DNA of 64,000 nucleotides from Planctomycetota bacterium. GTDB lineage: Bacteria > Planctomycetota > UBA11346. The position numbers and the translations under genes are program-made. A model generated the notes under the pieces. That model did not search any database. It was not told the DNA's origin and was given only the letters and a program-made list of their open reading frames with translations. This document shows positions 32,431 to 63,856 of this stretch, in pieces (the first letter of the stretch is position 1; every line of letters starts with the position of its first letter). The stretch is from NCBI GenBank assembly GCA_014193115.1, contig BJHQ01000005.1:238982-302981 (forward strand). The letters run 5' to 3'.

Positions 32431-32718
32431 ATGACCGATCTGACCGCATCCCTTCGCGTCGTGCTGCTGACGATCGTGCTCGCAGTTTTTCTGACGACCG
32501 GTGCGGCAGAACCGCTCCCGGCTCCCGCCCAACCCATCCGCTTCGATATCCAACTCGGCCCCGCCCAGTTCCCGGCCGGCAAGCCCAAGGCGGGTGCACC
32601 TCAGCCCGCCGTCCTCGGAGGTTACATCGAAGTGTGGTCGGCTCTGTGGGCACGAGTCGTTCAGCATGACTTCCGCGCCCATCTGCATCTAAAACTCCAT
32701 GCCGGAGGGATACTATGA
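32431..32718 (+). pseudogene. Truncated array paralogue (N-terminal fragment)
   Basis: This 95-codon frame has a signal peptide (LLTIVLAVFLTTGAA) followed by PIRFDIQLGPAQFPAGKPKA and QPAVLGGYIE. These match the 36142 paralogue nearly base for base over about 100 bp (compare 36235-36334). After GGYIE the similarity stops abruptly and about 28 unrelated codons follow before the stop. The stop overlaps the ATG of the next gene (ATGA). It is the 5' remnant of a duplicated paralogue, or the product of recombination with it. A short secreted peptide could still be made, and it may act as a translational leader for the next gene. Confidence 0.8.
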
Positions 32719-35700
32719 AAACCACCCTTGCCCTGATCCTTACAACCGGGATTTTGACATGTTTATCCCCGCTTGCCGCCGCCGACCTGCCCCAGGTCGA
32801 TCGGTCCAAACCCTTCCACATCGACCTGTGGATGGGAGTGCCGAGCAAAGATGCCCTGGCCAAAATCGGCATCGATGGTTCGAAGAATAAACTTCCTTCC
32901 GATCCTTCCAGCGGCTGGACCTTCCCCTGGTTCATCGGCGCCGTGCAGGTGGGGACCGAGATCCGGCAACCATATGCACTGCCCTACGAATCCTGGTACA
33001 CCCCGCACAACCAGTTGCAGGAAAATGACGGGAACTGTCCCTACGCCTTCTTCAACTTCCGCCAGGCCAAGGAGGACCTGCAGGCTTTCTCGTGCACGAT
33101 CACGGATGCAAAGATCAGCGGCAACGCACGGGTCGATCTGGGCGGAACCCAAGCCCTGTCCGTGGCCTGGGAAGGGACCATCAGCGGCAATTCGATCCGC
33201 GGCAAGGCGACCATGTCCCTGGCGGAAGACCGGGTTCTGGAACGACCGCTGGTCGGCGTCCTGCGCCCCACCGAACCGCTCGATCTGCGCAACGCCGTGT
33301 ATCAGATCAGGTTCAAGGGCCAGGTCCTGGTCTTCGAGGTGCGCGATGGCAAAGCCGGGCAGGGTTCCGGTCGCCCGTGGGATCCCATTGGACGTCCCGT
33401 CGCCTTTGGCCGGCTGCTGCCGGTCGACGCCTCCCAACTGACGGTCACCGCCCTGCCCCCCGAGGTGCGTGGCGTTTCGGTGGCCCTCGCCGGGATCGTG
33501 CAGGTGGATGGAAAACCGCTGGAGATTCCCACGACCGTGGTCCTGGCCAACGGTCTGGCCGTCGGACAGGCCACTCGGGGCAAGATGCCTGGGGTCGAGG
33601 TCCAGGCCTATCCCCTGACCGATCCGGTTGCCGCCCGCTGGCGCGACTGGATGGGCGCGATCCATGCCGAGGGCAAACCGGTGGATCCGGCCCTGGTTCA
33701 GCAGGCCCAGGACGAGGCTGCCACCATTCCCGCCCTGCCGGCACCCAGTCCCGCCACGACCTTCACCCATCAGCACCTGGAAGGCCGCTTTATTTACGCA
33801 CCCTGGCTGCCCCTGTCGGCAACCGCTGGCGCCGTCAAATATCGGATTGAACTGACCCCATCGCATCCGCCACACTCCAAGCCCCTGGTTCTGGAGGTCG
33901 CCGCTGCGCAAAGTGTCGATCTGCGGCCGGTCTGGGCAGGCATGGCCCCTGGCAACTACGCCCTGGCGATCACCGCCCTGGATGCTGGCGGCGCAGCGAT
34001 CGGCACGGCGCAGCGATCCAAACTGATCAAGAAGGTGCCCTTCGGTTCCCATCCCTTGACGGTCATTCCTGATCCCATCGCCATGGACCTTGCCCTGCGC
34101 TTTCCGCGCTACCTGGCCGATCACCAGTATGCGTTCCATACCCTTTTTCGGGAAATCGATGCCGCCGGCGAGAATGCCGTCATCAGCAAAACCATCGCCT
34201 CCATCTGCCATTCGCCCTGGCATCTTCTGACTCGCTGGGGGACGCCCGCCGAGCAGGTCCGGGGCCGGGTGCTGGCGGACTATTTCACCAAGGTGCTCCA
34301 ATGGGATGCCGACCAGCCCCTGGGCATCCAGCAGGGCTACAAGGCCATGTACTTCGGCGCGGCCCAGGACTGGGGCCGGGCCGTGCTGGATGATTTTGCG
34401 GCCACCAAGGCCGAGGACCGCTTGGCCCTGGTGCGGACGGCCTTCGACCGCCTGTACCGCCTGCAGCAACCCAGCGGTTCGTGGGCACTGATGTGGGACC
34501 GGACTCCATGGCCCAAGTGGTCGGGCGCCTTCACCATGTGGAATACCGCCTGGCTTGACCACAATGGCGCCGCATACGCCCTGCCCTTCGGGCGCTACCG
34601 CAATCTGAGCGGCGACCACCGCTATCTGGATGCCGAACTCAAGGCCGTGCGCTGGGTGCTGCGCAACTCTCTGCGCACCGGTTATTGGGAGACGCAGGCG
34701 CAGCAGGGCGACTCCAACTACAACCGGCCCACGGCGCACACCATGGCCTTGGATTTCCTGCTCTACCTGCTGGAGCAGGCTCCGGCCGATCAGGCCGATT
34801 CCGTGCTGGCCGAGGACATCATGCGCTACCTGGAAGACCAGTTCATCACCTGGGACCGCGTCCCGGCGGTCAGCGGTGGCACCATGACCGACAACGGCGT
34901 CCTGCGCCTGGCCATCGTCTCGCTGCTGCTGCACCAGCGCACCGGCAAGCCCATGCACCTGGCCAAGGCCGAAGCGCTGTTCAACGCCTACATGATCAAC
35001 CGCGACCCGGTCAGCGGCCTGACCGACATGCGCTGGAACCGCTATATGTCGGAAGTTGACGATCCGGTGTACGCGCTGCGTTATGTTGAACTGCGCCGCC
35101 AGGTACTGGCTGAACCAACTTCGTCTGCCGTTCTTGGCACCACGCCGCTGACCCTGACCCTGGACCGCGCCGCCGCCGGCAGCGAACGGGTCCGTCTGCA
35201 TCTGGACAGCCGTGACGGGAAGGTCGTACAGGCCATCGCCACCACCCCCACCTGGCAGACCCTCGACATCCCCTTCACCACCGTTTCCCGGCGCCACCAG
35301 CAGGACGGTGAAACCCTGTTCCATGCCGTCGATGCCAGTGGCCTCAAGGTCGGCCCCCACGGCATCGAAGGCTCGGTGAGCGTGGCCCTGGCCGCACCCG
35401 GCGGCACGCCGGTGCCCACCGTGTTCAACCTCACCGCCGCACCTGGACAGCGGACGCTGGTCGGCACCTGGTCGCAGGGCACCGCCACCGGTCGCGTCGC
35501 CGGCGAAGGTCTGCGCCCAAGCGTGGCCAAGCCCAAGCACCTGCACCTCCAGATCGCCCAGGCCGTGGCCGGCGGCGAATCCTGGCAGAACTGGGCGCTG
35601 CTGCGCACCAATTTCCAGGACGGTACCGCAACCGGTGCAGTCATCTGTAACACCAACGCCGGCTGGCGCGCGACCACCACCGCCTGCGACCTGCGCCTGG

Positions 35701-36101
35701 GGACGGATGGAACCATCAGCGGCAGTCTGGCCACCGACGTGCGCTGGATCGGCTTCATGGACAACAACGCCAGCGATGAGGCCAAGACCAAGGAATGGAA
35801 GACCGGCACCCTGGATTGGCTGGCCTATTGGAAACTCGGCGGCCCCGGCACCGGACGCGGCAACGAATACGAACCCGGCTTCCGGCCCCTGCCTTGGCCC
35901 GAGCACACCAGGATCCCCGGCAAGGACGACAAGTCCACCGGCCAGCTCGAATATAGCACCACGTCAAAGCCAGTGACCCCAGGAACCTACCGGATCGTCT
36001 TCGCCAGCCGACGCATCGGCGATCTGGTCGCCGGCACGGCCACGGTGGAAACACCGGATGGCAAAAAGCAGGTCAGCCAGTGTTTCGGCAGTGTCGAATG
36101 A
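32715..36101 (+). CDS. Array paralogue 1 (long type): secreted multi-domain protein, predicted (alpha/alpha) toroid
   Basis: This 1128-aa protein has a signal peptide (1 to about 22) and an N-terminal beta region to about residue 330. A module near 355-440 begins RFIYAPWLPLS and contains AVKYRIEL, like an Fn3-type sandwich. A helical region of about 350 residues follows, with LYRLQQPSGSW (invariant part 582-590), ADQADSVLAEDIMRYLEDQFITWDR and VDDPVYALRYVELRRQ. C-terminal beta modules end PDGKKQVSQCFGSVE. It is the most divergent long member; the PYHYN block of the others is replaced by IQQGYKAMYFG. GGAGGG precedes the ATG. I recognise no named family; a glycan-active hydrolase, lyase or epimerase is the working guess. 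Confidence 0.85.
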   Translation: MKTTLALILTTGILTCLSPLAAADLPQVDRSKPFHIDLWMGVPSKDALAKIGIDGSKNKLPSDPSSGWTFPWFIGAVQVGTEIRQPYALPYESWYTPHNQLQENDGNCPYAFFNFRQAKEDLQAFSCTITDAKISGNARVDLGGTQALSVAWEGTISGNSIRGKATMSLAEDRVLERPLVGVLRPTEPLDLRNAVYQIRFKGQVLVFEVRDGKAGQGSGRPWDPIGRPVAFGRLLPVDASQLTVTALPPEVRGVSVALAGIVQVDGKPLEIPTTVVLANGLAVGQATRGKMPGVEVQAYPLTDPVAARWRDWMGAIHAEGKPVDPALVQQAQDEAATIPALPAPSPATTFTHQHLEGRFIYAPWLPLSATAGAVKYRIELTPSHPPHSKPLVLEVAAAQSVDLRPVWAGMAPGNYALAITALDAGGAAIGTAQRSKLIKKVPFGSHPLTVIPDPIAMDLALRFPRYLADHQYAFHTLFREIDAAGENAVISKTIASICHSPWHLLTRWGTPAEQVRGRVLADYFTKVLQWDADQPLGIQQGYKAMYFGAAQDWGRAVLDDFAATKAEDRLALVRTAFDRLYRLQQPSGSWALMWDRTPWPKWSGAFTMWNTAWLDHNGAAYALPFGRYRNLSGDHRYLDAELKAVRWVLRNSLRTGYWETQAQQGDSNYNRPTAHTMALDFLLYLLEQAPADQADSVLAEDIMRYLEDQFITWDRVPAVSGGTMTDNGVLRLAIVSLLLHQRTGKPMHLAKAEALFNAYMINRDPVSGLTDMRWNRYMSEVDDPVYALRYVELRRQVLAEPTSSAVLGTTPLTLTLDRAAAGSERVRLHLDSRDGKVVQAIATTPTWQTLDIPFTTVSRRHQQDGETLFHAVDASGLKVGPHGIEGSVSVALAAPGGTPVPTVFNLTAAPGQRTLVGTWSQGTATGRVAGEGLRPSVAKPKHLHLQIAQAVAGGESWQNWALLRTNFQDGTATGAVICNTNAGWRATTTACDLRLGTDGTISGSLATDVRWIGFMDNNASDEAKTKEWKTGTLDWLAYWKLGGPGTGRGNEYEPGFRPLPWPEHTRIPGKDDKSTGQLEYSTTSKPVTPGTYRIVFASRRIGDLVAGTATVETPDGKKQVSQCFGSVE

Positions 36102-36141
36102 AACTTCCTGCAACCGATGATCTACGGAGAAACAACAAACC

Positions 36142-39100
36142 ATGACCAAGTCCATCCACCTGGTCCTGCTGGCGGGTTTGCTCGTGGGAATTCATTCACT
36201 CAGTGCAGCGGAAACCCCGCTGGATACCTCGAAACCCATCCGCTTCGACATCCAACTCGGCCCCGCCCAGTTCCCGGCCGGAAAACCCAAGGCGGGTGCC
36301 TTTCAGCCCGCCGTCCTCGGAGGTTACATCGAAGGCGGCAAGGTCACCGGGGCCTATGCGCCAAACATGACCGCAGTCTATGCGGCCGGGCAATCGCCTG
36401 ATGACAACTATTGGGATCTCTGCCCGTACGGGCCGCGTGCACCGATCGAAGGCGAGGCCGCCTGGAGCAGCCGCATCCGCGAGGTTTCAGCGTCCATCGG
36501 CCCGGATGGTTTCCATGGCACCTGGAGCGTCAGTTTCGGCAAGGGCGATCCGGCCAAGAGCCCGGCCATCACCCCTGAATTGAAGATCCGCATCAAGGCG
36601 CATGCGGGTGTGGTCGGCTATGTGGGCACGTATGAAGGCACGGTGGGCGATGCGGCGGTGCAGGGTCCCTGCGTGGTCCGCGCCCGCAATGTCGCCGCCG
36701 GTATGATTGATCCCGCCAATGCCTTTTACCAGATCATCGGTGGCGGCTTCCGGGTCTTCGTCGAGGTCCGCGCCGGCAAGCCGGTGCAGGCCTGGGCGGT
36801 CGCCAATGGCGTGGGCAATCAGGGTTGGGTCTACCGGCGTCCGGACGCACCGGCGGCTGCCACCCGATTGTCCCCGGCCGATGCCACGGTGCTCACCATC
36901 GCCATTGCTGATGAAGGTCTGGCCGGAACGGCCGCCACCTTGCATGGCACCATCACCATCGCCCCGTCCACCACCCTCAAACTGAATGAAGTGGTCGTCA
37001 GTGGCGCCGGAAAAATGCGGGTTTCCGGTAAGGATTCCACGGTCGAGGCGGTGCGCAGTTATCCGCTCAACGATCCGCAGATGGCTCGCTGTCTGGATCT
37101 GCTCAAGGAGACGCATCGTGGCACCAAACCAGTCCCCGAGGCCCTGCTGGCCCAGGTCCGGCAGGAATCCGTGCGCGACGATGTCCAACCGGCGCCCAGC
37201 GAGGCGATGCGTTATACCCACCGCCTTTGGAAATCGAGCAGTTTCATCTATGCGCCCTGGTTCGACTTCGAAACCGTGCCTGGCGCGGTGAAGTATCGCT
37301 TCGCCATCCACACCTCGAACGTCCACAACCAATTAGTTGAACCGCCGGTCATCAGTTTCGAGGCCGCTTCACCACGCGCCTCGTTGGCTCCGATCTGGGA
37401 CAAAATGCCGGTCGCGGACGGTCCACGGGCGTTTCTGTCGCTCAAGGTGACCGGCCTGGATGCCGCCGGCAAGCCGGTTGGTGAACCGCAGTCCCGTGGC
37501 ATCCAACGCCGGTCACCCTTCAACCCCGAAATGATCGTCACCCCCGACGCAAAAGTGCTGATGGAACTGGCCCTGCGCCAACCACGCTTCCTGTTTGATC
37601 AGTATCATTCCCATCTGTATCTGACGGAAGCCGTGCGTGCGGCGGGCAACGGCGTTCAACCATTGGGCTACGGTCCCAGCCACTGGCATAACACGCAGCA
37701 ATGGCTGGCCATGGAGGAGACCGACCCCGGGCGTCGCATCCAGCAGTTGCGCCTGCTGGATACCTTCAACAAGCAGCGCCTGCTCGACGTCAATGGCGCC
37801 TTCAAGACCCCGTACCATTACAACGCCGTCGTCAGTGGCGTCGTGCAGGAGACCGGTCGCAACTATCTCAATGCCCTCGATATCCAGTTCGATGCCGAGG
37901 TGGTCGACCGGTTGCGGTTGTGGCTCCGGTATTTCGGTCGCTTGCAGCAACCCAGCGGCTCGTGGTGCATCTCGGAGCGGGCCGCGCTTGGCTGCTCTGG
38001 CGGGTATAGCCTGTGGGGCAGCCGGCACCTGGAGAATACCAGTGCGCCGTGGCTGCCTTTTATGGCGCGGCTGCGCCGGTTCGATGACCAAATCGAAACC
38101 CGCTCCCTCGCCCGCGCCATCGAGGAGCGAGCGTCATCGTGGGTTCGCAACAATACCCTGCGCACCGGTTTCGGCGAACAGATGCATCAGCAGACCGATC
38201 CCACCGACATGGCGCATTCGGCCCAGAACCAGATCGAATACGTGCTCTACGTCCTCCGGCACGCACCGCCATCGCAACGCGATTTGGTCATGGCCAGCGA
38301 CCTGATGCGCCGCATCGAAGATCTCTTCATCACCTGGGATGCGCTGCCGTTGACCGGGGGCGGTGCTTTCACCTTCGGACCATCGCTGCCTGCCGTCGAG
38401 GCGCTGTGCCTGCTGGAACTCTACACCCTGGATGGCGACCCAGCGCTGCTCGCCAAGAGTGAGGCCTTGGCCGCATCGTACCTGCAACGCGCTGATCCCT
38501 GGAACGGAAGCGGGGCCGATCCGATGACCGGCGGTTTCAGTTTATCCTACAACCGATTCCTGCAAGAAACCGATGACCCGGAATGGATCGTGCGCTGGGT
38601 GCAACTCCATCGCGCTCTCACCAAGGCTCCGCCTGCCGCCATCCCGGAACGTCATCTCACCCTCACCTGCGATCGGCTCATCGACGGCGTCGATCGCGTG
38701 GTTCTCGACCTGGCCATCGCCGACGGCAAGATCACCCAGGCCCTGGCCCGCACTCCGACCTGGGATGGACCAGGAGCGAACTTTCATCAGCCCGGACGCC
38801 TGCACACCCGCCCCGGAAAGAAGCTGTTCCACACCGTGGATGCCACTGGTCTCGCCATCACGCCGGACGGCATCAGCGGGCAAGTCATGCTGACTTTGCA
38901 CGATCCGCAGGGTGGGGAGGCGCGCCGCCTGACCGTCGAAGTTACGGCGAAAAGACAGCATGTCCGCGGCTGGCTGGGAACCTGGAAGCAGGGTCCATCA
39001 GGAGGTCGGGTCGAAGGCCGTACCGTTGCCGACGCGCCAGCCACCGGGGCTCAGCAGATCTTCGTTCAGGTGCATGAAGCCCTGGCTGGTGGCGAGGCAT

Positions 39101-39612: not shown

Positions 39613-39634
39613 CCAAATCGGACGGGGAGGAGCC

Positions 39635-40438
39635 ATGACCAAATTCACCCATTTCAATCTTGGTCGGGAGGCGCCTGATCAGCAACGTCCGCTGTGGGAA
39701 CGCGGGGTCGGGGTGGATGTACTCGGACGGCACGATGATCGGATCACGTATCGGTTGCTTGTACTGCCCATGTTGTTCCTCATTGAACCAGCCGTTGCGG
39801 CGCGGGTAGGTGCGTATGCGGAAAATGGTGGCACGGTGTTGGCGACCTGGTTGACCGGCATCGTGGACGAGAACAACCTGTGCCATCCTGGTTGGCCAGG
39901 TGGCGGCCCGCGCGAATTATTTGGGATCTGGGCGGAGGAAATCGATGTGCTCCACGAAAGCGACCGGCAGGAAATTCACTTCAAGCCCGATACTTCGTTG
40001 AACCTGACCGGCCGGCATCGCGTCCGAGCTTACGCCGATCTTCAGCATCTTGAAGGCGCAACGGCAATAGCAGAATATGGAAGCGATTTCTATGCCGGAA
40101 GACCTGCCTTGACCTGTCATCGCGTCGGTCGGGGCGAAGCCTGGTATCTCGCCGCCGAACTCGACCACGTCGGACTCCATGCCGTGGTTGGCGCATTGGC
40201 CAAACGAACCGGGATCCGCCAACTCCTGCCCACGCCGCATCCCGGTCTCACGGTTCAATCGCGTACCGACGGCAAGACCGAATGGCTCTTCGTCCTGAAC
40301 TTCTCGGGTCAAACCCATTCCGTGGACCCGGGACCAGTGACCGATCAGGAAACCGATGCCACCATACATGAACCTGTGCTGGTCACAGGATGGGGATCCA
40401 AAGTGGTATTTCGGAAAGCGAGGAATGCACTGTCATGA
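39635..40438 (+). pseudogene. GH42 beta-galactosidase C-terminal fragment (no catalytic barrel)
   Basis: This 267-aa frame matches only the C-terminal half of GH42 beta-galactosidases. The trimerisation domain shows YRLLVLPMLFLIEPAVAARV, ENGGTVLATWLTGIVDENN, WPGGGPRELFGIWAEEIDVL and GRGEAWYLAAELD. A short beta domain follows, with WLFVLNFSGQTHSV. The TIM barrel with its two catalytic glutamates (about 390 residues) is absent, and 22 bp upstream lies paralogue 2. A strong GGGGAGGAG sequence precedes the ATG, and MTKF resembles the starts of neighbouring array genes, so the fragment may still be translated. No signal peptide is seen. It is best read as a deletion remnant, or less likely a repurposed galactoside-binding domain. 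Confidence 0.75.
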
Positions 40439-40473: not shown

Positions 40474-43400
40474 ATGCGCCGCGAACTCATCCTGCTGGCG
40501 TATCTCGCCAGCGCATCCTTCACCCTGATGGCGGCAGATGCCCTCCCGCTAGGAAAACTTCCGCCGCCGAAACTGGATTATTCCAAACCGATACAGTTTG
40601 ATGTGCAATTTTCCCCTGTGGTATTTCCTCAAGATACCCCGAAAGAGGTTCGCGGTAATCCATTGCCGGCCATCATTGGCGGCTACCTGGAGGGTGGGAA
40701 GGTGACCGGCGCCTATGCGCCGGATATCAGCCACATCTATCATGCGGGTGCAAGTCCGGATCAGTTCGAGTGGGATCTGTGTCCGTATGGGCCCCGTCAT
40801 GGTACAGGATCGCGTGATGCTCAACGTGAAAAATTCACCAGTTCCACGCTGCGGATGACTGATGCTCAGGTTGAGGGAACCTGGCGTTTCAACTACATTT
40901 CCACCAAGGATTCCGGAAAAACAACCTCGCCAGTCTATGAAATCAGCATCCAGGCCACCGCGACCAGTTGCGGGTATGCCGGAACCTATACCGGAAAAAT
41001 AGCGGATGTGCCGGTCAGTGGCGATTGCGTGCTGGCCGCTCATAACATCCCGGCGGGGGTGATCGATCCAGCCAATGCCATTTACCAGATTCTTGGCGGG
41101 AACTACGCTGTCTTGGTCGAAGTCCAAGCGGGAAAAGCAGTCCAGGCCTGGGCGGTTGCGGGGGTGGTTAGTGCTGAACGAACCTGGAGGTATCGTTACC
41201 CCGGTGATGCGGTGGCCGCCACGTTCCTGTTTCCTGCCGATGCATCCGGCATGAGCCTGAAAATCACCGATGAGGGTCTGGATGGCAAGGCGGTCACGCT
41301 GGGTGGTCAGATTACCATCACGCCGGAACCCAAAACCGCTTCAAGGATGTTTGGACCAACGACCCTCGATCTCAGCGGAACGGTCATCAGCGGCGCAGGA
41401 AAAATACGAGGGAATGGCAAGGAATCCAAGGTGGAACAGGCCAGAAGTTATCCGCTCACCGATCCGTTGATGGCCCGCAGTCTGGCGCTGCTCAAGGAAA
41501 CTCATCGCGGTAGCAAACCAACCGCTCCAGAACTGCTGGCGCAGGCCGATCAGGAATCGCTGCGCACGGATGTCCAACCGGGTCCGAGCGAACAGACCCG
41601 TTACATGCAGCGCCTTTGGAATGGTGGCACGAGTGGGGAATATAACTACCATCGTTCCTACATTTATGCACCCTGGCTCGATCTTGAGGTTGTACCCAGC
41701 GCCGTCCGTTATCGGTTTGACTTGATCGACGCTTCGCATGAAAATACCGGAATCCGGCCCTTGATCGATTTCTTCGAAGCGTCCTCTCCACGGGTCTCGC
41801 TTCTTCCGATCTGGGCCAAGGTGCCCAAGAACCTTGGTCGGAACCCCATCAGTTCACTTCGTGTCACTGCTTTCGATGCTGATGGTAAAGCGCTGGGAAA
41901 ACCGCAGGAATGCGGTATCACTCGTAGGCCGGCTTTTTCCCAGGATCAGATCGTGACCCCTGATCCCAAGGTGCTGATGGAACTAGCGATGCGCCAACCA
42001 TACCATCTGACCACGCGATATTATTCACACCTGTATCTGACCGAGGCGGTACTGGCAGCCAAGAACGGGGTGAAGCCCCTGAGTTATGAATCTCCGCATC
42101 ACCATTTGCCACAGACCCTGATGGTCGAGCATGAGGATAATCCGGTCCAACGGGATCAGTACATGCGGTTGTTGAATACCTATGTGGATCGACGAATGAA
42201 GGAACAGAATGAACCCTACTTCAAGCTGCCCTACCACTACAACGTCGGCCTGAATGGCGTGGTCCAGGAAACCGGGCGAAATTTCCTGAACGTCCTGGAT
42301 CTTCAGCCGAATACCGAATTATTGGATCGTATGCGTCTGTGGACTCGCTTTTTTTCGCGCATGCAGCAACCCAGTGGTTCATGGACGATTTCCTATCGAG
42401 GTATGTTGGGGTGCACTGGCGGCTATTCCCTTGGTGGCAGTTTTTTCCTGGATCAACCGAGTACACCCTGGTTGCCATTTCTGGCCCGAATGCGCCAGCA
42501 TGACAATGATCCGACCTTTCGCGCCATGGAACGCGCCATCGAGGAAAAGGCGGCGTCCTGGGTTTTGAACAATACGCTTCGTACTGGTTTTTCGGAAAAC
42601 GTGCAGCAGCAGACCCTCAGCAACGACAATGGCCACACGGTGCCCAACCAGATTGAGTATGTGTTATATGTGCTGCGCCACGCACCGCCCGTCCAGCGCG
42701 ATGTCGTCATGGCCACCGATCTCATGCGTCGGATCGAGGATCTCTTCATTTCCTGGGAGGCGCACGCGAAAACGAGAGGAGGGAATTTCACCTTCGAGCG
42801 TTCGCTCTATCCGATCGAAGCCCTTTGCTTTCTGGAATTGTATGCGCTGACCGGTGATCCGTTGATGCGGGCCAAGAGTGAAGCCCTGGTCAGCACCTAC
42901 TTGCAAGACAGCGATCCCTGGAATGGCAGCAATGGTCTTTCCGGATTGACGAGTAAAATGAATTATGACCGATTCATCCAAGAAACTGACGATCCCGACT
43001 GGATCGTGCGTTGGGTGCATCGTGACCGTGAACTTCGCGCCACCCCGCCCTCTGCCGCACCCGAGCAACACCTGACGGTAACCCTGGATCAACTGATCGA
43101 TGGCATCGACCGGGTTGTGCTGGATTTGGCCCTGGCCGATGGCAGGGTGACCCAGGCCCTGGCGCGCACCCCAACCTGGGATGGACCTGGAATCAATTTC
43201 TATCAACCCGGCACTGTCCACACCCGTCCTGGCAAGGCTTTCTTCCACAGCGTGGATGCATCCGGCCTGAAGCTCAGCGCCGAAGGACTCAGTGGTACGG
43301 TGAAACTCACCCTAAAACCGCCCCAAAGCGATACCTTGATCTCCATGATCGCTGAAATCAGCGCCAAACGCCACGCTCTACGCGGCTGGCGTGGAACCTG

Positions 43401-51324: not shown

Positions 51325-51720
51325 ATGCGCAACCATCGTATCAGCGATGACAATCCAATGATTCACTGTTTACACCCGCATCGGTCACGATCCCTGGTGG
51401 TGGACTGCAAGCCTCTGACTCTGGATCCGGTCGAGATAAGACCGAATGGCTGGGTGGCCAAGGAGACCGAGGACAACAAAACTTGGTATGGCCTTGGTGG
51501 CATTCGTACCCGTGCCTATCACCACACCGGTCCGGTCGCCAAACACTGGAAGGAATGGATGACGGCGACCTATACGGGTACGCAGACGCTTTCGTCCGAA
51601 CTGAGGCAACAGGTGGCCCGGGAGACTGCGGAACTTCGGCGACGTGCTCGCGGGGACGGTTGCCGTGAAAGCCCGGATGGCAAAGAGGTCGTGTGCCAGT
51701 GTTTCGGAAGCCTTGAATGA
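51325..51720 (+). pseudogene. Decayed array paralogue remnant (paralogue-1 type, deleted and frameshifted)
   Basis: This 131-codon open frame joins two separated pieces of a long paralogue. Its centre, AYHHTGPVAKHWKEWM, matches the AYPLTDPVAARWRDWM block of paralogue 1 (about residue 300). Its end, SPDGKEVVCQCFGSLE, matches the last residues of paralogue 1. Just upstream of the end, GDVLAGTVAVK is readable only in a neighbouring frame, matching GDLVAGTATVE of paralogue 1, so a frameshift lies near 51670. The toroid and most C-terminal modules are deleted. The stop overlaps the following ATG at 51717. A stable product is unlikely. Confidence 0.8.
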
Positions 51721-55301: not shown

Positions 55302-55480
55302 TCGCCAGCGCGGTACGAGGGTGGCCTGGGATCAAGCGACGCCAGGCTTCGTCGTCCATTTGGGACAATAGAGTGGCCGTTGCAGACAACACTGGCCAGG
55401 TGCACGGGAGTACAAGGATTATGCCCGTCTCAACTGGTCGATTGTCGGCACCGCTCCGGCAGGTGAGCCGCCCCCGATCT
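55301..55480 (-). pseudogene. Duplicated AraC 5' end plus upstream region
   Basis: This segment aligns with 32201-32370. Positions 55301-55380 correspond to the first 27 or so codons of the AraC regulator read on the minus strand (compare MATILSQTDGEA). The start codon has changed from ATG to ACG and the rest of the gene is missing. Positions 55381-55480 correspond to the regulator's upstream DNA, with a 10-bp insertion. It lies in the 306-bp gap before the GH10 gene; the remainder (55481-55607) shows no gene. The coding part is dead, but the conserved upstream part could serve as a second regulator-binding or promoter site. Confidence 0.8.
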
Positions 55481-55607: not shown

Positions 55608-57002
55608 ATGACCACCACCCCGATCATCCTTGAGAACGGCCAAGAATGGAAAATCCTCGAATCAGCAACTGCTTTTTCCACGGATAAATACAAAGATCTG
55701 ATTGAGGACAGCCATGCCCGCATCGATCAGCGGCGGCGGCGCTGGTTGGCCCTGCGGCTGAGCGACCGGGACGGCAAAGCCCTTGCCCATCGGACCGTGC
55801 GCCTGCGGCAGTTGCGCAGTGATTTTCTCTGGGGATTTTGCGGTGCCGGAGTGATGGACGCCTGTCACGAACCGCAAAGACTCGAAAATGATGTGGTCAG
55901 ACGCAACCTGCTGCACCTGGGTCGCCTGTTCAACGCGGTGAATCTGTTGAACTATTGGCAGGAGTGGTCTTGGAAGGAGACGCAAAAAGGCGAAGAGTTC
56001 ATGGGGTACCAGAACTACGACACCCTTGACCGGGCGGTGCAGTGGGCCTGTGGCCATGGTCTGGTGGCCAAGTGCCATCCGCTGTGGTGGGGCGTCCCCA
56101 AGGCCATCCCCGCTTGGATGGACCGTTTTGATGCGAAGAAACGCTCCATGTTCCGTGAGGTCCGTCTGCGTCAGATCGTCAACCGGTTCAAGGGACGCGT
56201 CAGTGTTTATGACGCAGTCAACGAGGCCATCTGGGAACCGACCCTGGCCAAGACCGCCACCCGCCACTGGCCTCACAACACACCGATCCCCGAGTTGGCA
56301 CAGGACCTCGCCGAAGTCATGGCCATCGTTCGTGATGAGGATCCAAATGCGACGATGGTCATCAATGATTACGGCCAATGGGTCGGCGATACGACCAAGA
56401 TTCCGGTTGCCTGCAGCGATGGCACCTTTATCAGCAATCAGGACCAGGCCCAGCGTTACCGGGACCTGATGATGGCCCTCAAGGATCTGGGTGCTGCCCC
56501 CGATGCCATGGGTTTTCAGGGATTTTCAGCCATCGGGAAACTGGAACAGCACGTGGCCACGTATGATTTCCTGGCCAAGACCGGCCTGCCCATCCACGTC
56601 ACCGAATTCCATGCCGGAGGAGCCCATGCTGCAAACTTGGTGAAGGCCGGTGTGCCCCGACCTGAAATCATCGACCGGATCGCCGAATATGCCGATGCCT
56701 CGATGGTTTTGGCTTTCGCCCATCCGGCTCTTGAGGCATTCTTCTTCTGGTATGACCAGGACTATCTGTTCGATGGACGCGGTCTGCCCAGCGCCTGGTA
56801 CAACCGGATCTACCAGCGCATCCACAAAGACTGGACCACCGATGTGGTTATGACCACTGACGCGGATGGACTCCTGCGTACTCGCGCCTTTACCGGCAGT
56901 TATCGCCTGTCCTTCGAAGAGCCAGGCGTATCGCCCACCGGAATCAATCTCAGCATCCCGGCCGCCAGTCGCGGGGAAATCGCGATGCAGGTCATCATAT
57001 GA
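55608..57002 (+). CDS. GH10 family endo-1,4-beta-xylanase
   Basis: This 464-aa protein has a GH10 TIM barrel. The acid/base Glu is in VYDAVNEAIW (near residue 206), the nucleophile in LPIHVTEFHAG (near 332), and HPLWWGVP and FFFWYDQDYLF are the substrate-cleft blocks. GH10 enzymes cleave the beta-1,4-xylan backbone with retention of configuration. The N-terminal 100 residues (HARIDQRRRRWLALRLSDRDGK) form the beta domain seen before the barrel in several PVC-type GH10 proteins. No signal peptide is seen from this ATG, which is odd beside secreted neighbours, and suggests action on oligosaccharides in the cytoplasm or non-classical export. It is the clearest substrate clue in the array. Confidence 0.9.
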   Translation: MTTTPIILENGQEWKILESATAFSTDKYKDLIEDSHARIDQRRRRWLALRLSDRDGKALAHRTVRLRQLRSDFLWGFCGAGVMDACHEPQRLENDVVRRNLLHLGRLFNAVNLLNYWQEWSWKETQKGEEFMGYQNYDTLDRAVQWACGHGLVAKCHPLWWGVPKAIPAWMDRFDAKKRSMFREVRLRQIVNRFKGRVSVYDAVNEAIWEPTLAKTATRHWPHNTPIPELAQDLAEVMAIVRDEDPNATMVINDYGQWVGDTTKIPVACSDGTFISNQDQAQRYRDLMMALKDLGAAPDAMGFQGFSAIGKLEQHVATYDFLAKTGLPIHVTEFHAGGAHAANLVKAGVPRPEIIDRIAEYADASMVLAFAHPALEAFFFWYDQDYLFDGRGLPSAWYNRIYQRIHKDWTTDVVMTTDADGLLRTRAFTGSYRLSFEEPGVSPTGINLSIPAASRGEIAMQVII

Positions 57003-57153
57003 TCGGCTGGCAACAAGCCGCGCAGGACACTCATCCTGGAATGAGATGTCAACAAACGCGAGATATTCCGACCATGCAGAAGGGAACCAGATGACCCAAT
57101 GCGCTGGACGGGCATCGTGGTGCATCATGAACCAACCGCAGGAGAATATTCCT

Positions 57154-60100
57154 ATGTGCTGCCAGCCCGTTACTGATCGTCTCGCCTCTTTCCCTCCGGC
57201 ACCGTCCTGGCCACACGGCGCAGCATCAGTCTGGGGCAGGCGGTTGGCGGTTTTCCTAGCGGTGCTGTCCGTGGCCGTGGCCGCCGATCCGGCCCTCGCC
57301 GGCCTCACCATCGATCGCGGTGTCGCCCTGAGCGTGCCCGGTTCCAAGACCACCATCGAACTCGCCAGCAGCGGGCGGTTCGTGGTCCATGCCCTGGTGG
57401 TGGATGAGGCCGCCCGTGCGTCCCTGGCGGCGCAGCTGGCGGCGGCGGAGAGCTCCGCCGGTATCGTTCAGTCGGATGCACTGCCCCGCCTGCCGTATGG
57501 CGACCGAATCGCCAACCTGGTGGTGTGTGATGCCGACGCCCTCGGCGGCAAGGCTCCGACCCAGGCTGAGGTGCAGCGGGTGTTGGCTCCAGGCGGTGTC
57601 CTGCGCTGGCACCAGGGCGGGACCTGGACGACCATCGCCGCCTCGGCCACCGCCTCAGGCATCTGGCCAAGTTTCGATGGCGGCCGAGGCAGCATGGCCA
57701 GCACCGATGATCCGCTGATCACCCTGCCTCTGGCGGCGCGCTGGCTGGATGGGCCGGTGATCGGCCAGACCCCGGCCGGGGTCGACATCTGGTGCAGCGT
57801 GGTCAATGGCGGCCGATATGTCCAGGTCACCAACATCGACGAGGCCAATGTCCATGCGCCGGCCCGACAACGGCCGTTGTGGATCGTCGCCCGGGACGCC
57901 AGCAATGGCACCCGGCTGTGGCGGCAGCGCTATCCAACCGATCTGTCGGCCCAGAAGGCTCTGCCCTGGGGCGGCTACATTGCCGCCAGCCCGCGCTGCA
58001 TCTTCGCTTTCGCTGGCAGCGATCAGGTTGCGGCCTTCGACGGTGCCACCGGGGCAGAGATTCGCCGCTTCGCCCTTGGCGGTCCCCGGCGGATTCCCGG
58101 GCACCTGGTGTGGCAGGGCGACCGGCTGCTGGCTCAGACCACCGCCGGCTGGAGCGCCTTCGCCGAGGACGGCACACCGGCCTGGTCCATCGTCACGAAG
58201 GACCTGTGGCCAGGCTGGGGAGCGGCGATGATCACCCATCTTGCCGACCATCAGGTCCTGGTGCTCCAGGAAGGCGATCGCATGCGGGCGTTCAACCTCG
58301 CCGACGGCACTGAACGCTGGTCGGTGGCCATGTCCGCTCCCGGCGACCGCGGCGTGCGAACCTGGCAGCTGCAGGCGCTGTCCGGGGGCAGCGTGGCGGT
58401 CCGGACCCAAGGCGAACTCACCGCGTATTCCCTGGTGGATGGCCTCAAGCGCTGGACGGTGGCAGCGACCGGCAACCTTCCTTTCACTGGCCGGCCTGAC
58501 ACCTACGCCTGGAACGGTGGATTCGCCCGTGCCGGGAAGAAATTTGATGCGGTGACCGGGGCCGACCTGGGCGGAGCGCCGAACGCCAGCGTCGATCGCT
58601 GCACCCTGCCTCTGCTGACTTCTACCTTCCACATCAGCAGCCACAGCAGCCATGTCGGCAGCGCTGATCCCAAACAGCGCCTGCCTGGTTACGCAGCCCT
58701 GCGCCTGTCCTGCAACAGCGCCAACGCGGTGGGTTCGGGGCTGATCTTCGGCATCGCCTCGGACTGCATGTGCAATGCCAGCCATCTGCGCGGCATCACC
58801 GCCCATGGTTCGGCCCCGGCTGCGCTCATCCAGGCCGATCCGCAGACGCCCCGGCCCACGGTGCGCGGTGCCGGGAAGCCGGCGCCAGCTGCCAGCTCAG
58901 CGCCGGCAGCAGCCTCTGGCAAGGAATGGCCGATGTTCCGGCAGAATATCCAGCGATCTGCTGGTCTCGACGCCGCGCCGCTGCGGTCGCCAGCTCAGCT
59001 CTGGAGCGTGGCCGCATCACCGTCGTTGGTCCCTGGCCCGGTGGCCGTGTCCCGGGCGGCTGGCGGACAGGCGGGCATCCGCGGGCTGACCTGTGCCGAG
59101 GGACTGGTCTGCGTCGCCGATGCCGGCCATCAGCGGGTCCTTGGCCTGGACGTTGGCGACGGTCGGCGGCGCTGGGCGGTGCAACTGGGCGCTGGCCTGG
59201 ACACACCGCCAACCATTCACGCCGGGCGGGTGCTGTTCGGCGCCCTCGACGGCTGGGTGTGGTGTCTTGCGGCGACGGACGGAGCGCTGATCTGGCGTAC
59301 CCGGCTGGCCCCCGCCGAGGATTTCCTGCCCGCATACGGCCAGGTGGCGTCGCGTTGGCCGGTGGTGGGGGCGGTGACGGTGGCGGATGGCCTGGTCCTG
59401 GCCAGCGTCGGGCGCAGCACCGCGGTGGATGGCGGGGTGCTGTTGGCTGCTCTCGATCTCGATACCGGCGCAGTGCGCTGGATCCGTCCGATCAATCCGG
59501 TTGGAGGCCGGGAAAGCCGCTCGTTCAACGACGTGCTCATCGCCGGCGGCCGCGGTCTGCGCTTCCTCGGTCAGCCGGCGACGCCGGTACCGGCGCCTGC
59601 TGCTCAGGAAAAGGAATCACCTTCCGACACCCTGGTCCCAGCGGTGGAGGGCCTGGCCAACTTCGTGCGCAATGACCAGGACGCGGCTCTGCACGGCTAT
59701 ACCTGGGCCCCGATGTTGTACGGCGGTATTCGTGGCCGGTTGCTGGCCTGGCGCGATCAGCGGATCTTCGGCTTCGCCCGGCACAGCTACGCGTGGATCA
59801 ACAACAGCACCACCCAGCTCAAGGATCCCCTGGCCGTTTTCATGGCCCCGGCCGACCTCGTCAGCTCGGCCGCCAGCAACCTGCCGGCCAAGAATGCGCC
59901 CGCGGACTACGGTCCACCGACGGCGTGGAGCCGGCCCCTGGGTGCGACCAGCGATCGCCTGCAGGCCTGCCTGGTGGTGGGCGACACCGCCTGGGCCGCC
60001 TGGACGGTTGCTCCGGCGGCGTCTGGCGCTGCGGATGCTGCGGCTGCGGCTGCGCCAGCCGCGGTCCGGGAGACCGGCCGCATCGCCAGTTGGAAACTCG

Positions 60101-60228
60101 CGGATGGCACGCCCGGTCCGATCATCGACCTCGATGCCGGCCTGATGCGCGACGGCCTGATCGCCACCGACGGCCGGCTGTATGCGGCCTGCTCCGATGG
60201 TTCCGTGCGCTGCTTCCATGATCGCTGA
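57154..60228 (+). CDS. Secreted degenerate methyltransferase-like domain fused to PQQ-type beta-propeller
   Basis: This protein is 1024 aa from the ATG preceded by AGGAG at 9 bases. A hydrophobic leader RRLAVFLAVLSVAVAADPALA lies near residues 33-53. The next 110 residues resemble a class I SAM methyltransferase found at the start of some large PQQ proteins: TTIELASSGRFVVHALVVDE, LPYGDRIANLVVCDAD and VQRVLAPGGVLRW. The usual glycine-rich SAM loop is missing, so catalysis is unlikely. The rest is propeller blades (VARDASNGTRLWRQ, FNLADGTERWSV, ALDLDTGAVRWIRP), interrupted by a Cys-containing SDCMCNASHL block. It probably works outside the cytoplasm with the array enzymes. The frame is open further upstream, but that would overlap the GH10 gene. 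Confidence 0.82.
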   Translation: MCCQPVTDRLASFPPAPSWPHGAASVWGRRLAVFLAVLSVAVAADPALAGLTIDRGVALSVPGSKTTIELASSGRFVVHALVVDEAARASLAAQLAAAESSAGIVQSDALPRLPYGDRIANLVVCDADALGGKAPTQAEVQRVLAPGGVLRWHQGGTWTTIAASATASGIWPSFDGGRGSMASTDDPLITLPLAARWLDGPVIGQTPAGVDIWCSVVNGGRYVQVTNIDEANVHAPARQRPLWIVARDASNGTRLWRQRYPTDLSAQKALPWGGYIAASPRCIFAFAGSDQVAAFDGATGAEIRRFALGGPRRIPGHLVWQGDRLLAQTTAGWSAFAEDGTPAWSIVTKDLWPGWGAAMITHLADHQVLVLQEGDRMRAFNLADGTERWSVAMSAPGDRGVRTWQLQALSGGSVAVRTQGELTAYSLVDGLKRWTVAATGNLPFTGRPDTYAWNGGFARAGKKFDAVTGADLGGAPNASVDRCTLPLLTSTFHISSHSSHVGSADPKQRLPGYAALRLSCNSANAVGSGLIFGIASDCMCNASHLRGITAHGSAPAALIQADPQTPRPTVRGAGKPAPAASSAPAAASGKEWPMFRQNIQRSAGLDAAPLRSPAQLWSVAASPSLVPGPVAVSRAAGGQAGIRGLTCAEGLVCVADAGHQRVLGLDVGDGRRRWAVQLGAGLDTPPTIHAGRVLFGALDGWVWCLAATDGALIWRTRLAPAEDFLPAYGQVASRWPVVGAVTVADGLVLASVGRSTAVDGGVLLAALDLDTGAVRWIRPINPVGGRESRSFNDVLIAGGRGLRFLGQPATPVPAPAAQEKESPSDTLVPAVEGLANFVRNDQDAALHGYTWAPMLYGGIRGRLLAWRDQRIFGFARHSYAWINNSTTQLKDPLAVFMAPADLVSSAASNLPAKNAPADYGPPTAWSRPLGATSDRLQACLVVGDTAWAAWTVAPAASGAADAAAAAAPAAVRETGRIASWKLADGTPGPIIDLDAGLMRDGLIATDGRLYAACSDGSVRCFHDR

Positions 60229-60361
60229 ACCAGACCAGGCGAGCATCCAAAGTATTCACCAGGCATGTCAGTGCCTGCATCAGCATCACCGCTTGACCTC
60301 GGAGCCGCCATCGGAGCGGCCAGAGTTCCAACATGCCAAGCACAATCACCAGAAGATAACC

Positions 60362-63300
60362 ATGATTAGGTCCATCCAGATTATCCTGCTGACGACTCTC
60401 GTCGGCCTATCATGCACATTGGCGGCTGCAGACGCCGCCAGCACTCCGCCGTCGCCAAGACTGGATTTGACCAAACCGGTTATCTTCGATGTCCAATTCG
60501 CTCCGGCGACGATTCCAAAGGATGCTCCGAACGAGGTTCGCAGCAATCCCATGCCGCTGATCATCGGCGGCTATCTGGAAGGCGGCAAGGTCACCGGGGC
60601 CTATGCACCGGATATCAGTTATGTGTATTTTCCTGGCGGAAGTCCGGATGAGGTCGCATGGGCGCTGTATCCCTATGGCCCATGTCGGGAAACGGGGAAT
60701 CGTGGTGGACGTTATGCACAACAAGAGAAGTTCGCTCGTGCATCCCTGCGATTGAACGGGAATCAGGCTGAGGGGGCCTGGACCTTTCGTTTCGTATCCA
60801 GCAAGGATCCCAGCAAGGCGCTCTCTCCAGATTATGCCCTGAGTATCAAGGCTGTCGTGAAGGGCAGCGGATTTGCCGGAACCTATTCGGGGAAGATTGC
60901 TGACTATCCGGTCAGCGGCGAGTGCGTCCTGTTCGCCCGCAATGTTCCGGCGGGGATGATCGATCCCCTCAATGCGTTCTACCAGATCATCGCCAGCAAT
61001 TACCGAGTAGTGGTGGAAGTCCGGGCGGGCAAGGCGGTCCAGGCCCTGGCAATAGCCAGCGGCAATGACGCACATGCCACCGCTGTGCATCCCGCCGATG
61101 CGTCAGGCATGACATTCACGCCGATGGATCAGGGCCTCGACGGGACTGCGGTGACGCTGGGCGGACAGATCATAGTCACGCCATCGGTTTCAGCAGGTGC
61201 CAAGGCGATCCCCCCGGTCAGCATTTCCCTCGACGGCACGGTCATCAGTGGCGCCGGGAAGCTTCAGGTGAAATCCACGGTCAATTCCGCGCGCAATTAC
61301 CCGCTGGGCGAACCCTTGATGGCCAAGAGCTTCGATGTGCTGAAGGCGAGTTTCCGCGGGGCAAAACCAGTTTCACCAGAACTTTTGGCGCAGGCCGAGG
61401 CGGAGTCTCAGTGGAACGTTCAGCCGGCCCCAAGCGAGTCGACGCGTTATTCCCATCGTCTGTGGCGCACCACGAGTTTCATCTATGCCCCTTGGCTGGA
61501 TTTCGATGCGGTGCCCAATGCCGTGCGCTACCGCTATACCATCGATCCGGCAGAACCGAGCAAGGACGTGAAAACCGCCAGTTTCGAGTCCCTGTCGCCC
61601 AAGGCGTCGCTCGCTCCGGTGTGGAAGGATCTTCCCACCAATACGGGGCTCAGACTGCAAGTGACCGCCCTTGATGCCCAAGGTGCGCCCATCGGCAAAC
61701 CCCAGGAAAAGCTGATCACGAAACGCGCCCCCTTCGGTCCTGAGATGGCGGTGACCCCTGAGGCCAGGGTGCTCATGGATCTGGCCATGCGCCAACCCTA
61801 TCACCTGACCGAACGCCTCCATTCCCACCTGTACCTGACCGAGGCGGTGATCGCCGCAAATACCTCGGTCAAACCGATGGAGTATCACAATGCCCATTTT
61901 CATTTCTCACAGCAACTGATGGCTGAACAGGAGCAGGATCAGGCGGGGCGGGATCAGTACCTGCGTCTCCTGGACACCTTCGTTCAGAGACGCCTGGAGG
62001 AAACCTTCGGGGAATTCAAGATCCCGTACCACTACAATGTGGTCCTGAGCGGCGTGGTGCAGGAAAACGGCCGCAATTTCCTCAATGCCTATGAGCAACT
62101 CCCGAATGCAACCGTACTGGATCGTTTCCGGCTTTGGGTGCGTTACTTCGCCCGTTTGCAGCAACCGAGCGGTTCTTGGACCATTTCCTCGCGTGCGGCA
62201 TTCAGTAGTACCGGCGGGTTCAGTCTGTGGGGAAACCGTTTTCTGGATGCAACCAGCATTCCGTGGCCGCCGTTTCTCGCGCGCCTGCGCCAGATCGACT
62301 CTGATCCTGGCACGCGTGCGCTCGAACGTGCCATCGAGGAACGTGCCATCGCCTGGTTTTCCAACAACACCTTGCGGACGGGTTTCGGAGAATTGCTGCA
62401 CCAGCAGACCGATCCTGGTGATATGCAGCACTCCGCCGGGAACCAGATTGAATACGCCTTATATGTTCTGCTCCACGCGCCGCCTGCGCAGCGCGATGTG
62501 CTCATGGCCTCGGACCTCATGCGGCGCATCGAGGATCTCTTCATTTCTTGGCATGCTGTCCCCACCACCGGGGGTTGGAATCTGACCTTTGGCAATTCTC
62601 TGTATGCGGTCGAAGCCCTGTGCCTCATGGAATTATACGCCCTCACCGGCGATCCGCTGCTGCGCGCCAAGTCGGAGGCCCTGGCAACCGCCTATTTGCA
62701 ACGGAATGATTCGTGGCATGGCACCAATCCCAATTCCAACGCCTATGTCGGTGGCGATGCCCTCGGCTATAATCGCTATATCCAAGAGCAGGATGATCCC
62801 GACTGGATCGTCCGCTGGGTGAAACGGGACCGTGAACTGCGCGCCTCACCGCCAGTCGCGATTGCTGAAAAGCATATCTCGTTGTCGTTGGATCGGCTGA
62901 TCGATCAGACCGATCGGGTGGTTTTGGATCTCCAGGTGGCGGATGGCCAAGTGACCCAGGCCCTGGCGCGCACGCCGACCTGGGACGGCCCAGGAATCAA
63001 TTTTTACCAGCCTGGCAGGCTTCACACCAGGTCCGGCAAGGCACTGTTTCATGGTGTTGATGCCTCGGCCTTGAAACTCAGCGCCCAGGGGCTGAGCGGC
63101 ACGGTCAAACTTGCCCTCAAACCGCCACAGGGCGAAGAGATCCGCAATATCACCGTGGAAATCAACGCCAAACGCCACGCGCAACGCGCCTGGCGCGGCG
63201 CCTGGAAACTCGCCCAGGAAAATGGTCGGACCGAAGGCATCACCCTGCTTGATCCGGAGATCACCGGATCGCAGCAGGTCTTTGTCAAAGTCCACGAAGC

Positions 63301-63856
63301 CCTGGACGGTGGCGAAGCCTGGCAGACCTGGGCCTTGGCCGGTACCGTCATCCCGAAAAACGGCAGTGCGAGCGGTGCCATGCTGGTCAATCCCAATGCC
63401 GGTTGGACCGCCCAGACTTCGGTGAGCGACTGTGAACTGAAATCCGAATCCTTCGCCATGACCATGAACACCGAAGTCGCCTGGCACGGTGTGGCAGAAC
63501 GATCCAAGCCCGATGCCTGGCAGTGTTACACCTACAAGACCACTCCTGAAGCGAAGGAGGCGCTGCTGGGGTATTGGCAGATCCCCATCACCCGAGGCGG
63601 CGGCGGCGAAAAGAACGGTGAGTTATACCTCAATCTCGGCTTCCCCCTGCGCCCGGAAATCGGGGATCTGCCACCAGATGGAAAACTGACCTATGAAACC
63701 AGCTGGAAACCGGTCACCCCGGGAAAATACCTGTTGAAGCTCACAGGCCAGCGCCTGGGCAACATCCTGTACGGCACAGCCACCGTGACCGGGCCGGACG
63801 GAAAAAACGTTGTTCGTCAGTTCCTTGGCGATGCCGAAAGCATCGGAAAGCCGTGA
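60362..63856 (+). CDS. Array paralogue 8 (long type): secreted multi-domain protein, predicted (alpha/alpha) toroid
   Basis: This protein is 1164 aa from MIRSIQIILLTTLVGLSCTLAAADA; longer in-frame starts exist but lack a leader. It keeps the whole long-type layout: PVIFDVQFAPATIPKDAP, GGYLEGGKVTGAYAP, MIDPLNAFYQIIAS, SSFIYAPW-type block (TSFIYAPWLDFDAVPNAVRYRY), SHLYLTEAVIAANTS, FKIPYHYN, RLQQPSGSW (598-606), LHQQTDPGDMQHS, MRRIEDLFISW, TPTWDGPGINFYQPG and NPNAGWTAQT. Like paralogue 2 it has a DPGDMQHSAG-type loop where 3 and 7 have SNDNGHT, which may mark a specificity difference. Its stop overlaps the GTG of the next frame. Function unknown. Confidence 0.85.
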   Translation: MIRSIQIILLTTLVGLSCTLAAADAASTPPSPRLDLTKPVIFDVQFAPATIPKDAPNEVRSNPMPLIIGGYLEGGKVTGAYAPDISYVYFPGGSPDEVAWALYPYGPCRETGNRGGRYAQQEKFARASLRLNGNQAEGAWTFRFVSSKDPSKALSPDYALSIKAVVKGSGFAGTYSGKIADYPVSGECVLFARNVPAGMIDPLNAFYQIIASNYRVVVEVRAGKAVQALAIASGNDAHATAVHPADASGMTFTPMDQGLDGTAVTLGGQIIVTPSVSAGAKAIPPVSISLDGTVISGAGKLQVKSTVNSARNYPLGEPLMAKSFDVLKASFRGAKPVSPELLAQAEAESQWNVQPAPSESTRYSHRLWRTTSFIYAPWLDFDAVPNAVRYRYTIDPAEPSKDVKTASFESLSPKASLAPVWKDLPTNTGLRLQVTALDAQGAPIGKPQEKLITKRAPFGPEMAVTPEARVLMDLAMRQPYHLTERLHSHLYLTEAVIAANTSVKPMEYHNAHFHFSQQLMAEQEQDQAGRDQYLRLLDTFVQRRLEETFGEFKIPYHYNVVLSGVVQENGRNFLNAYEQLPNATVLDRFRLWVRYFARLQQPSGSWTISSRAAFSSTGGFSLWGNRFLDATSIPWPPFLARLRQIDSDPGTRALERAIEERAIAWFSNNTLRTGFGELLHQQTDPGDMQHSAGNQIEYALYVLLHAPPAQRDVLMASDLMRRIEDLFISWHAVPTTGGWNLTFGNSLYAVEALCLMELYALTGDPLLRAKSEALATAYLQRNDSWHGTNPNSNAYVGGDALGYNRYIQEQDDPDWIVRWVKRDRELRASPPVAIAEKHISLSLDRLIDQTDRVVLDLQVADGQVTQALARTPTWDGPGINFYQPGRLHTRSGKALFHGVDASALKLSAQGLSGTVKLALKPPQGEEIRNITVEINAKRHAQRAWRGAWKLAQENGRTEGITLLDPEITGSQQVFVKVHEALDGGEAWQTWALAGTVIPKNGSASGAMLVNPNAGWTAQTSVSDCELKSESFAMTMNTEVAWHGVAERSKPDAWQCYTYKTTPEAKEALLGYWQIPITRGGGGEKNGELYLNLGFPLRPEIGDLPPDGKLTYETSWKPVTPGKYLLKLTGQRLGNILYGTATVTGPDGKNVVRQFLGDAESIGKP

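What the first reader, a model, noticed from the sequence alone, without database searches (positions are those of the whole stretch)
32431..63856. Array of seven giant secreted paralogues of unrecognised family, interleaved with PQQ propellers and glycoside hydrolases
Five long (paralogues 1, 2, 3, 7, 8) and two short (4, 6) proteins, all with signal peptides, fill about 31 kb on one strand with almost no gaps. Long members share RLQQPSGSW, PYHYN (except paralogue 1), MRRIEDLFI and an FIYAPW module. I recognise no named family. The neighbours are GH10, a GH42 remnant and PQQ-type propellers, and an AraC regulator is divergent. The inference is an undescribed periplasmic or secreted glycan-processing system diversified by tandem duplication.
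Basis: partly seen in the sequence, partly recalled or inferred. Interest (0 to 1): 0.93.

Follow-up and report, generated by a model that had tools for sequence, protein, structure and literature searches.

The report
Seldom-seen secreted barrel-protein family, tandem array
A 31-kb stretch of an uncultured Planctomycetota genome carries seven related genes for seldom-found proteins, each with a predicted ring-shaped helical barrel beside beta-rich parts and a likely export signal; they are likely sugar-chain-cutting enzymes multiplied by gene duplication, but no activity has been tested.

The parts
32715..36101 (+). L1, long paralogue 1 (1128 aa), type L1/C7/C19
36142..39612 (+). L2, long paralogue 2 (1156 aa); predicted: beta part 33-308, beta-sandwich 365-456, toroid 466-830, beta part 838-1152
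37534..38637 (+). toroid segment of L2 as used in the profile (residues 465-832)
39635..40438 (+). GH42 fragment: trimerisation and start of C-terminal domain, no catalytic domain matched
40474..44034 (+). L3, long paralogue 3 (ORF opens at 40390)
44058..46805 (+). S4, short paralogue (ORF opens at 44031); in the numbering of the 924-aa ORF predicted beta part 41-341, beta-sandwich about 454-527, toroid 534-918
46853..48496 (+). PQQ-type beta-propeller protein (ORF opens at 46769)
48544..51312 (+). S6, short paralogue (ORF opens at 48493)
51391..51717 (+). internally deleted remnant of an L1/C7-type long paralogue (52% identity to C7 over 82 aa, then its last residues)
51756..55301 (+). L7, long paralogue 7 (ORF opens at 51717); 79% aa identical to L3
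55305..55477 (-). remnant resembling the 5' part of the AraC gene (81% over 149 bases; 67% over 27 aa)
55608..57002 (+). GH10 family protein, no signal peptide seen by eye
56866..60228 (+). large PQQ-type beta-propeller protein (start uncertain, perhaps 57154)
60362..63856 (+). L8, long paralogue 8 (ORF opens at 60182)
32440..32631 (+). truncated N-terminal fragment of an L2-type paralogue (102 bases 94% identical to L2), remnant
31378..32688 (-). divergent AraC-type regulator (HTH_18); true start probably inside the ORF

Best explanation
The seven genes encode likely secreted, likely glycan-cutting proteins of an unnamed family with a predicted helical toroid, and the array arose by repeated duplication and decay. 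Shown by sequence: common descent of the toroid and beta-sandwich, purifying selection between copies, three decayed fragments (two of this family, one of AraC type), and a strand run that continues past the window into two more propellers, a GH95 and a GH78-type gene. Predicted: export, and the toroid fold. Inferred: a sugar chain lies across the long-loop face of the toroid, next to a Tyr that is identical in all 28 aligned toroids and reads His, by eye, in two remoter relatives; that residue would act as the acid/base; the most likely chemistry is beta-elimination on a uronic-acid-containing chain, with hydrolysis close behind. Each subtype keeps a different set of charged loop residues (nine L2-type sequences: K555, H559, E679, D689, H692, R805; twelve short-type: D577, D629, D691, D712, R750, D752, R754, E760), so the copies would differ in specificity. 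The GH10, GH95, GH78- and GH127-type enzymes beside them would trim the released oligosaccharides under AraC control.
Confidence: 0.5

Rival explanations
1. The toroids are hydrolases (exo or endo) rather than lyases, distantly related to GH127/GH88/GH76-type barrels.
For: S4 matches the GH127 Pfam model at E 1e-4 and 9 of 18 members of A2 match it at E up to 1; P0010 passes the cut-off; Foldseek/VIA place GH76 and GH88 among the listed rows; each subtype keeps its own conserved acidic loop residues.
Against: The S4 match covers only positions 143-208 of the 376-position GH127 profile; no Cys is invariant in the long, short or G007-type toroids, although a zinc-bound Cys is the GH127 nucleophile (PMC10728902, abstract seen in the listing); no acidic loop residue is shared by all 28 toroids; the GH127 protein of the same locus gives hhalign 2% or less.
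Confidence: 0.27
2. The proteins are non-catalytic glycan-binding or adhesion proteins of the periplasm or cell surface, the toroid serving as a scaffold (a functional stand-in for SusD-like capture proteins).
For: Much of each protein is beta domains; invariant residues do not cluster on the presumed active face; toroids also occur as thioester domains of complement proteins, 29 of 50 rows for L2.
Against: A conserved Tyr with subtype-specific charged loop residues looks enzyme-like; sugar epimerases take the top eight VIA rows of both models.
Confidence: 0.15
3. The toroids and the PQQ-type propellers form one multi-protein machine.
For: Propellers lie between paralogues in the window; the distant paralogue at C7 and the G007 relative also have a propeller gene beside them, and the G007 one resembles the window's propeller at 46853 (E 8e-24); a protein with beta-propeller and (alpha/alpha)6-barrel in one chain is described among beta-1,2-glucanase groups (PMC12102758, passages seen).
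Against: Propellers are abundant: 26 and 12 matches to two types in this genome, self included; of the other fetched places with a G007-type gene, G128 (2 places) and G006 (1 place) show no neighbour that matches the compared propellers.
Confidence: 0.08

Closest known systems
Cellobiose 2-epimerase / N-acylglucosamine 2-epimerase (AGE) fold, Pfam PF07221
   Different: 7-12% sequence identity in the listed rows; no PF07221 match in the seven window proteins; added beta-sandwich and beta domains, predicted export.
GH127 beta-L-arabinofuranosidase, Pfam PF07944
   Same: Weak local sequence match in short members.
   Different: Below cut-off for all seven window proteins; no invariant Cys; GH127 middle domain not matched.
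PL10 pectate lyase, Pfam PF09492
   Same: Toroidal fold of PelA (PMC10992409, passages seen) and the QxPxGxW motif; 8 of 18 members of A2 match at E up to 1, best 0.016; profile A2 meets PDB 1r76 at E 0.002.
   Different: No scanned member passes the cut-off; the profile link rests mainly on the motif.
SGL-clan beta-1,2-glucanases (GH144, GH162, GH189 and newer groups)
   Same: (alpha/alpha)6-barrel, in one case with beta-propeller and further beta domains (PMC12102758, passages seen); shows that new families on this fold keep being found.
   Different: No sequence comparison was made here.
Smaller relatives in other Planctomycetota: G281:C53 (587 aa), G281:C218 (729 aa), G159:C256 (674 aa)
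   Same: Beta-sandwich signature F-x-[YH]-x-P plus toroid and EDQFVLW; hhalign 95.6-98.4% with the long and short toroids for the two G281 proteins (the G159 one was not given to hhalign).
   Different: Shorter, without the large N- and C-terminal beta parts of the long type; Tyr reads His by eye in G281:C218 and G159:C256; all under Pfam cut-offs and the two G281 proteins without an NCBIfam family above cut-off.

Membership tests
Helical toroid ((alpha/alpha)6-type) superfamily | Ring of alternating inner and outer helices | tested here: met
GH127 (PF07944) | Pfam cut-off 24.9 bits for PF07944 | tested here: not met
   S4 21.8 bits; other six window proteins no match. Metagenomic relative P0010 25.9 bits (passes), P0013 24.6
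GH127 (PF07944) | Conserved zinc-bound catalytic Cys | tested here: not met
   No invariant Cys in 12 long, 12 short or 4 G007-type toroids; feature from PMC10728902 abstract
PL10 (PF09492) | Pfam cut-off 22 bits | tested here: not met
   No match in the seven window proteins; best bit score seen 17 (P0013); best E among A2 members 0.016
PL10 (PF09492) | Putative base Arg524 and Ca-site Asp451 of Pel10A | not tested
   No alignment through those residues was made; residues from PMC10992409 passages
AGE (PF07221) | Pfam match PF07221 | tested here: not met
   No match in seven window proteins; the distant G007 protein 19.4 bits, cut-off 23.4
GH76 and GH88 | Pfam match PF03663 / PF07470 | tested here: not met
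   No match in seven window proteins; P0013 GH88 14.5 bits, cut-off 26.6
Any CAZy family (dbCAN models) | dbCAN/CAZy assignment | not testable with these tools
   No CAZy library on hand

The most novel reading that the evidence does not exclude
An undescribed family of polysaccharide-cutting enzymes (a new CAZy-level family), built as beta-domain / beta-sandwich / helical toroid / beta-domain, in which a Tyr or His is the acid/base and the loop residues around it are re-dealt between tandem copies, so that one 42-kb strand run holds a set of cutters for different linkages of one complex acidic glycan.
Probability: 0.35. Interest if true: 0.7.

Novelty: new variant of a known kind. Interest (0 to 1): 0.5.

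Why it matters
If the proteins are active, this is a new carbohydrate-active enzyme family: none of the seven passes a Pfam or NCBIfam cut-off, and several relatives are called 'hypothetical protein' by their source. Seven diverged copies in one place are a ready test set for how specificity changes after duplication. The beta-sandwich plus toroid profile is also a handle for unannotated relatives elsewhere in Planctomycetota.

Tried and rejected
Shared beta module with the propellers: by eye the beta parts looked alike in the paralogues, the propellers and a contig-end protein; hhalign against the family's beta parts gave 2% or less, so dropped. Within the family the N-terminal beta parts of long and short are probably related (88.5%), long N- to C-terminal only weakly (41.5%).

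PL10 membership: hhalign 27%, 67% and 87% (long, short, G007-type) to a PL10-annotated protein, but 2%, 6% and 21% with one QxxxGxW motif masked; 12 shuffles and the reversed protein gave under 1%. The G007-type match lies outside that protein's Pfam PL10 stretch, the long and short ones overlap it. Not accepted as membership.

Alginate-lyase-like protein of the window (25854-27767): 15% to the short toroid, 6%; not followed.

GH127 or AGE membership: the GH127 and AGE proteins of the same genome gave hhalign 2% or less.

Conservation test for an active face: no enrichment of invariant residues in long loops, as I drew them from DSSP; told as evidence against.

One search (profile A2) found the same 15 proteins as and no bridge. 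Searches scored only about 8,000 candidates each and did not list L1, L8 or S6 of the array itself, so their counts are lower bounds. The genome searches also scored only a few candidates per genome (7, 9, 2, 5, 3).

Literature: seven searches on Planctomycetes/Planctomycetota with propeller, PUL, toroid and tandem terms, Cock Soda Lake, PL10 and GH127; the listed titles and abstract starts showed nothing on this family. Passages were read in PMC12102758 and PMC10992409; PMC10728902 only as the start of its abstract. What a signal peptide looks like and which face of a toroid carries the active site are recalled.
Full report
What is there. The window lies at C5:238982-302981 of a 5.25-Mb, 36-contig assembly, 94% complete. 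Two genomes of the same GTDB family can be tied to named records: SLQH01000547 (same length and 100% match as the G007 contig) and REDP01000203 (same length as the G006 contig), both called Planctomycetota MAGs, so the host is an uncultured Planctomycetota bacterium. Seven homologous genes lie on the plus strand between 32715 and 63856, with a GH42 fragment, a GH10 gene and two PQQ-type propeller genes among them and an AraC gene divergent. The strand run does not end with the window: L8 is followed by a 1014-aa propeller (BamB-like by sequence), a 1051-aa one that is 55% identical to it, a GH95 (PF22124, E 7.5e-79) and a GH78-type gene (PF17389, E 1.6e-11), to about window coordinate 75007; an AraC-like gene on the other strand (by eye) and a GH127 (PF07944, E 8.8e-28) follow. 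That is 15 genes on one strand over about 42 kb.

Family status. The seven proteins were scanned against Pfam and NCBIfam: nothing passes a cut-off; S4 reaches PF07944 (GH127) at E 1e-4, below cut-off, over 66 residues. Phmmer against PDB sequences gives nothing of note for L2 (best E 0.29) and a weak match of S4 to the putative endoglucanase 3h7l (E 0.0016). Profile A2 reaches the PL10 pectate lyase 1r76 at E 0.002, profile A3 nothing better than 0.16.

Homology across the family. hhalign with 12 long, 12 short and 4 distant (G007-type) sequences: long/short toroid 99.2% E 1e-19; long/G007-type 97.9% E 5e-13; short/G007-type 99.2% E 7e-20; long/short beta-sandwich 99.6% E 3e-24; long/short N-terminal beta 88.5%. 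Controls from the window (PhoX, ankyrin, propeller) give under 1%; GH127, AGE, GH95 and GH78 proteins of the same genome 2% or less; the window's alginate-lyase-like protein up to 6% (15%). Two unnamed G281 proteins give 95.6-98.4% with long and short toroids (G281:C53 only 49.3% with the G007 type) and share the beta-sandwich signature and EDQFVLW; G281:C53 also has PPTYQG. A third G281 protein (C121) lacks EDQFVLW.

Conserved residues. Six columns are identical in 28 of 28 toroids: Y560, Q602, G606, R645, E661, G789 of L2. Q602/G606 belong to the QxPxGxW motif, which squalene-hopene cyclase and PL10 chains share, so it is probably structural. The Tyr sits in the loop before an inner helix, on the face with the longer loops; by eye the place reads His in G281:C218 and G159:C256 and Tyr in G281:C53, and is unclear in G281:C121. 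Each subtype keeps its own charged loop residues. Against an active-face reading: invariant residues are not enriched there (27 of 147 vs 42 of 244 for short, 13 of 144 vs 22 of 224 for long).

Distribution. L2 finds 8 and S4 15 proteins among 5.77 billion at E up to 0.01. Three of the 8 are the window's own L2 (one residue different), L3 and L7, and one of the 15 is S4 itself. These searches scored about 8,000 candidates each and missed L1, L8 and S6, so the numbers are lower bounds. In 98 relatives, including one genome of the same genus, L2 has a full-length match only in its own genome (2 of 98 with any match; the other is 80 residues at 29%); S4 in its own and, over 251 residues, in G007. 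The G007 protein matches 13 of 392 phylum genomes at E up to 1e-5, but over most of its length only G007, G128 (two copies) and G006; the own genome matches by the toroid of S6 and S4, the rest by its Ig-like or C-terminal stretch. With the toroid profile, 11 of 392 match at E up to 1e-5: four strongly (own, G007, G006, G128; E below 1e-100) and seven weakly. The G281:C53 protein finds 3 of 392 at E up to 1e-10: own, G159, G281. The own genome holds nine toroids of the profile: seven here, one at C7, one at C19 (all 47 candidates scored).

Evolution. Tree (FastTree): L3 pairs with P0003 (0.97) and L7 with P0006 (0.99), so the L3/L7 duplication is older than the split from those metagenomic relatives; S6 groups with P0021 (0.945), though at only 40% identity. 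P0006 and P0021 have the same sources and the same longest contig length, 12,847 bases, so a long and a short member probably sit together there too; the contig itself was not read. Nei-Gojobori dN/dS: L3/L7 0.19 (dS 0.64), L3/L8 0.24, L7/L8 0.23, L2/L3 0.24, S4/S6 0.46, the last four at dS 1.3-1.6, where the estimate is rough. Three decayed pieces lie in the gaps: an L2-type N-terminus at 32440-32631, an internally deleted L1/C7-type gene at 51391-51717 and an AraC-like 5' piece at 55305-55477. So the array gains and loses copies.

Propellers. The propellers match BamB and quinoprotein chains by sequence. They are abundant in this genome (26 matches to one type, 12 to the other, self included). 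The G007 relative has a propeller beside it that matches the window's propeller at 46853 (25% identity, E 8e-24), and the C7 paralogue has one too, but the neighbours in G128 (two places) and G006 do not match. I therefore treat the pairing as suggestive only.

Verdict. The proteins are a seldom-found, unnamed family on the helical toroid fold, likely secreted and likely glycan-cutting, spread by duplication and decay. Shown: homology, array history, selection. Predicted: fold, export. Inferred: enzymatic action, substrate class, Tyr/His role. The 0.5 for the best explanation is for the statement as a whole, whatever the bond-breaking chemistry; within it I lean to a lyase-like reaction (about 0.3), and the hydrolase rival (0.27) overlaps with it.

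Noticed in passing
window 32440-32631, 51391-51717, 55305-55477: Three decayed fragments (L2-type N-terminus, L1/C7-type internally deleted gene, AraC-like 5' piece) in the gaps of the array.
   Followed up: yes
L003 (C5:302001-322000) 834-16505: Past the window the cluster goes on with two propellers of over 1000 aa, GH95, GH78-type and GH127 genes, and by eye an AraC gene and a flavin-type oxidoreductase.
   Followed up: partly
own genome, C6:10757-23144 and others: Large PQQ-type propeller proteins look strongly expanded, with several in a row on C6 (26 matches genome-wide).
   Followed up: no
window 25854-27767 (-): Alginate-lyase/DUF4962-like protein, below Pfam cut-offs, beside an ECF sigma factor with a long C-terminal extension (27825-31484, -).
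   Followed up: no
L028 3030-6185 (-), L049 7913-11026, L050 8631-11702 (-), L051 8561-11650 (-): Distant toroid family with an Ig/fn3-like stretch (titin-type matches), in Planctomycetota and in MAGs named Opitutales and Verrucomicrobia.
   Followed up: partly
window 39635-40438: GH42 fragment without catalytic domain, opening with the same eight bases ATGACCAA as L2; looks like a leftover gene end.
   Followed up: no
L004 3482-6493 (-): 1003-aa contig-end protein with no Pfam match.
   Followed up: partly
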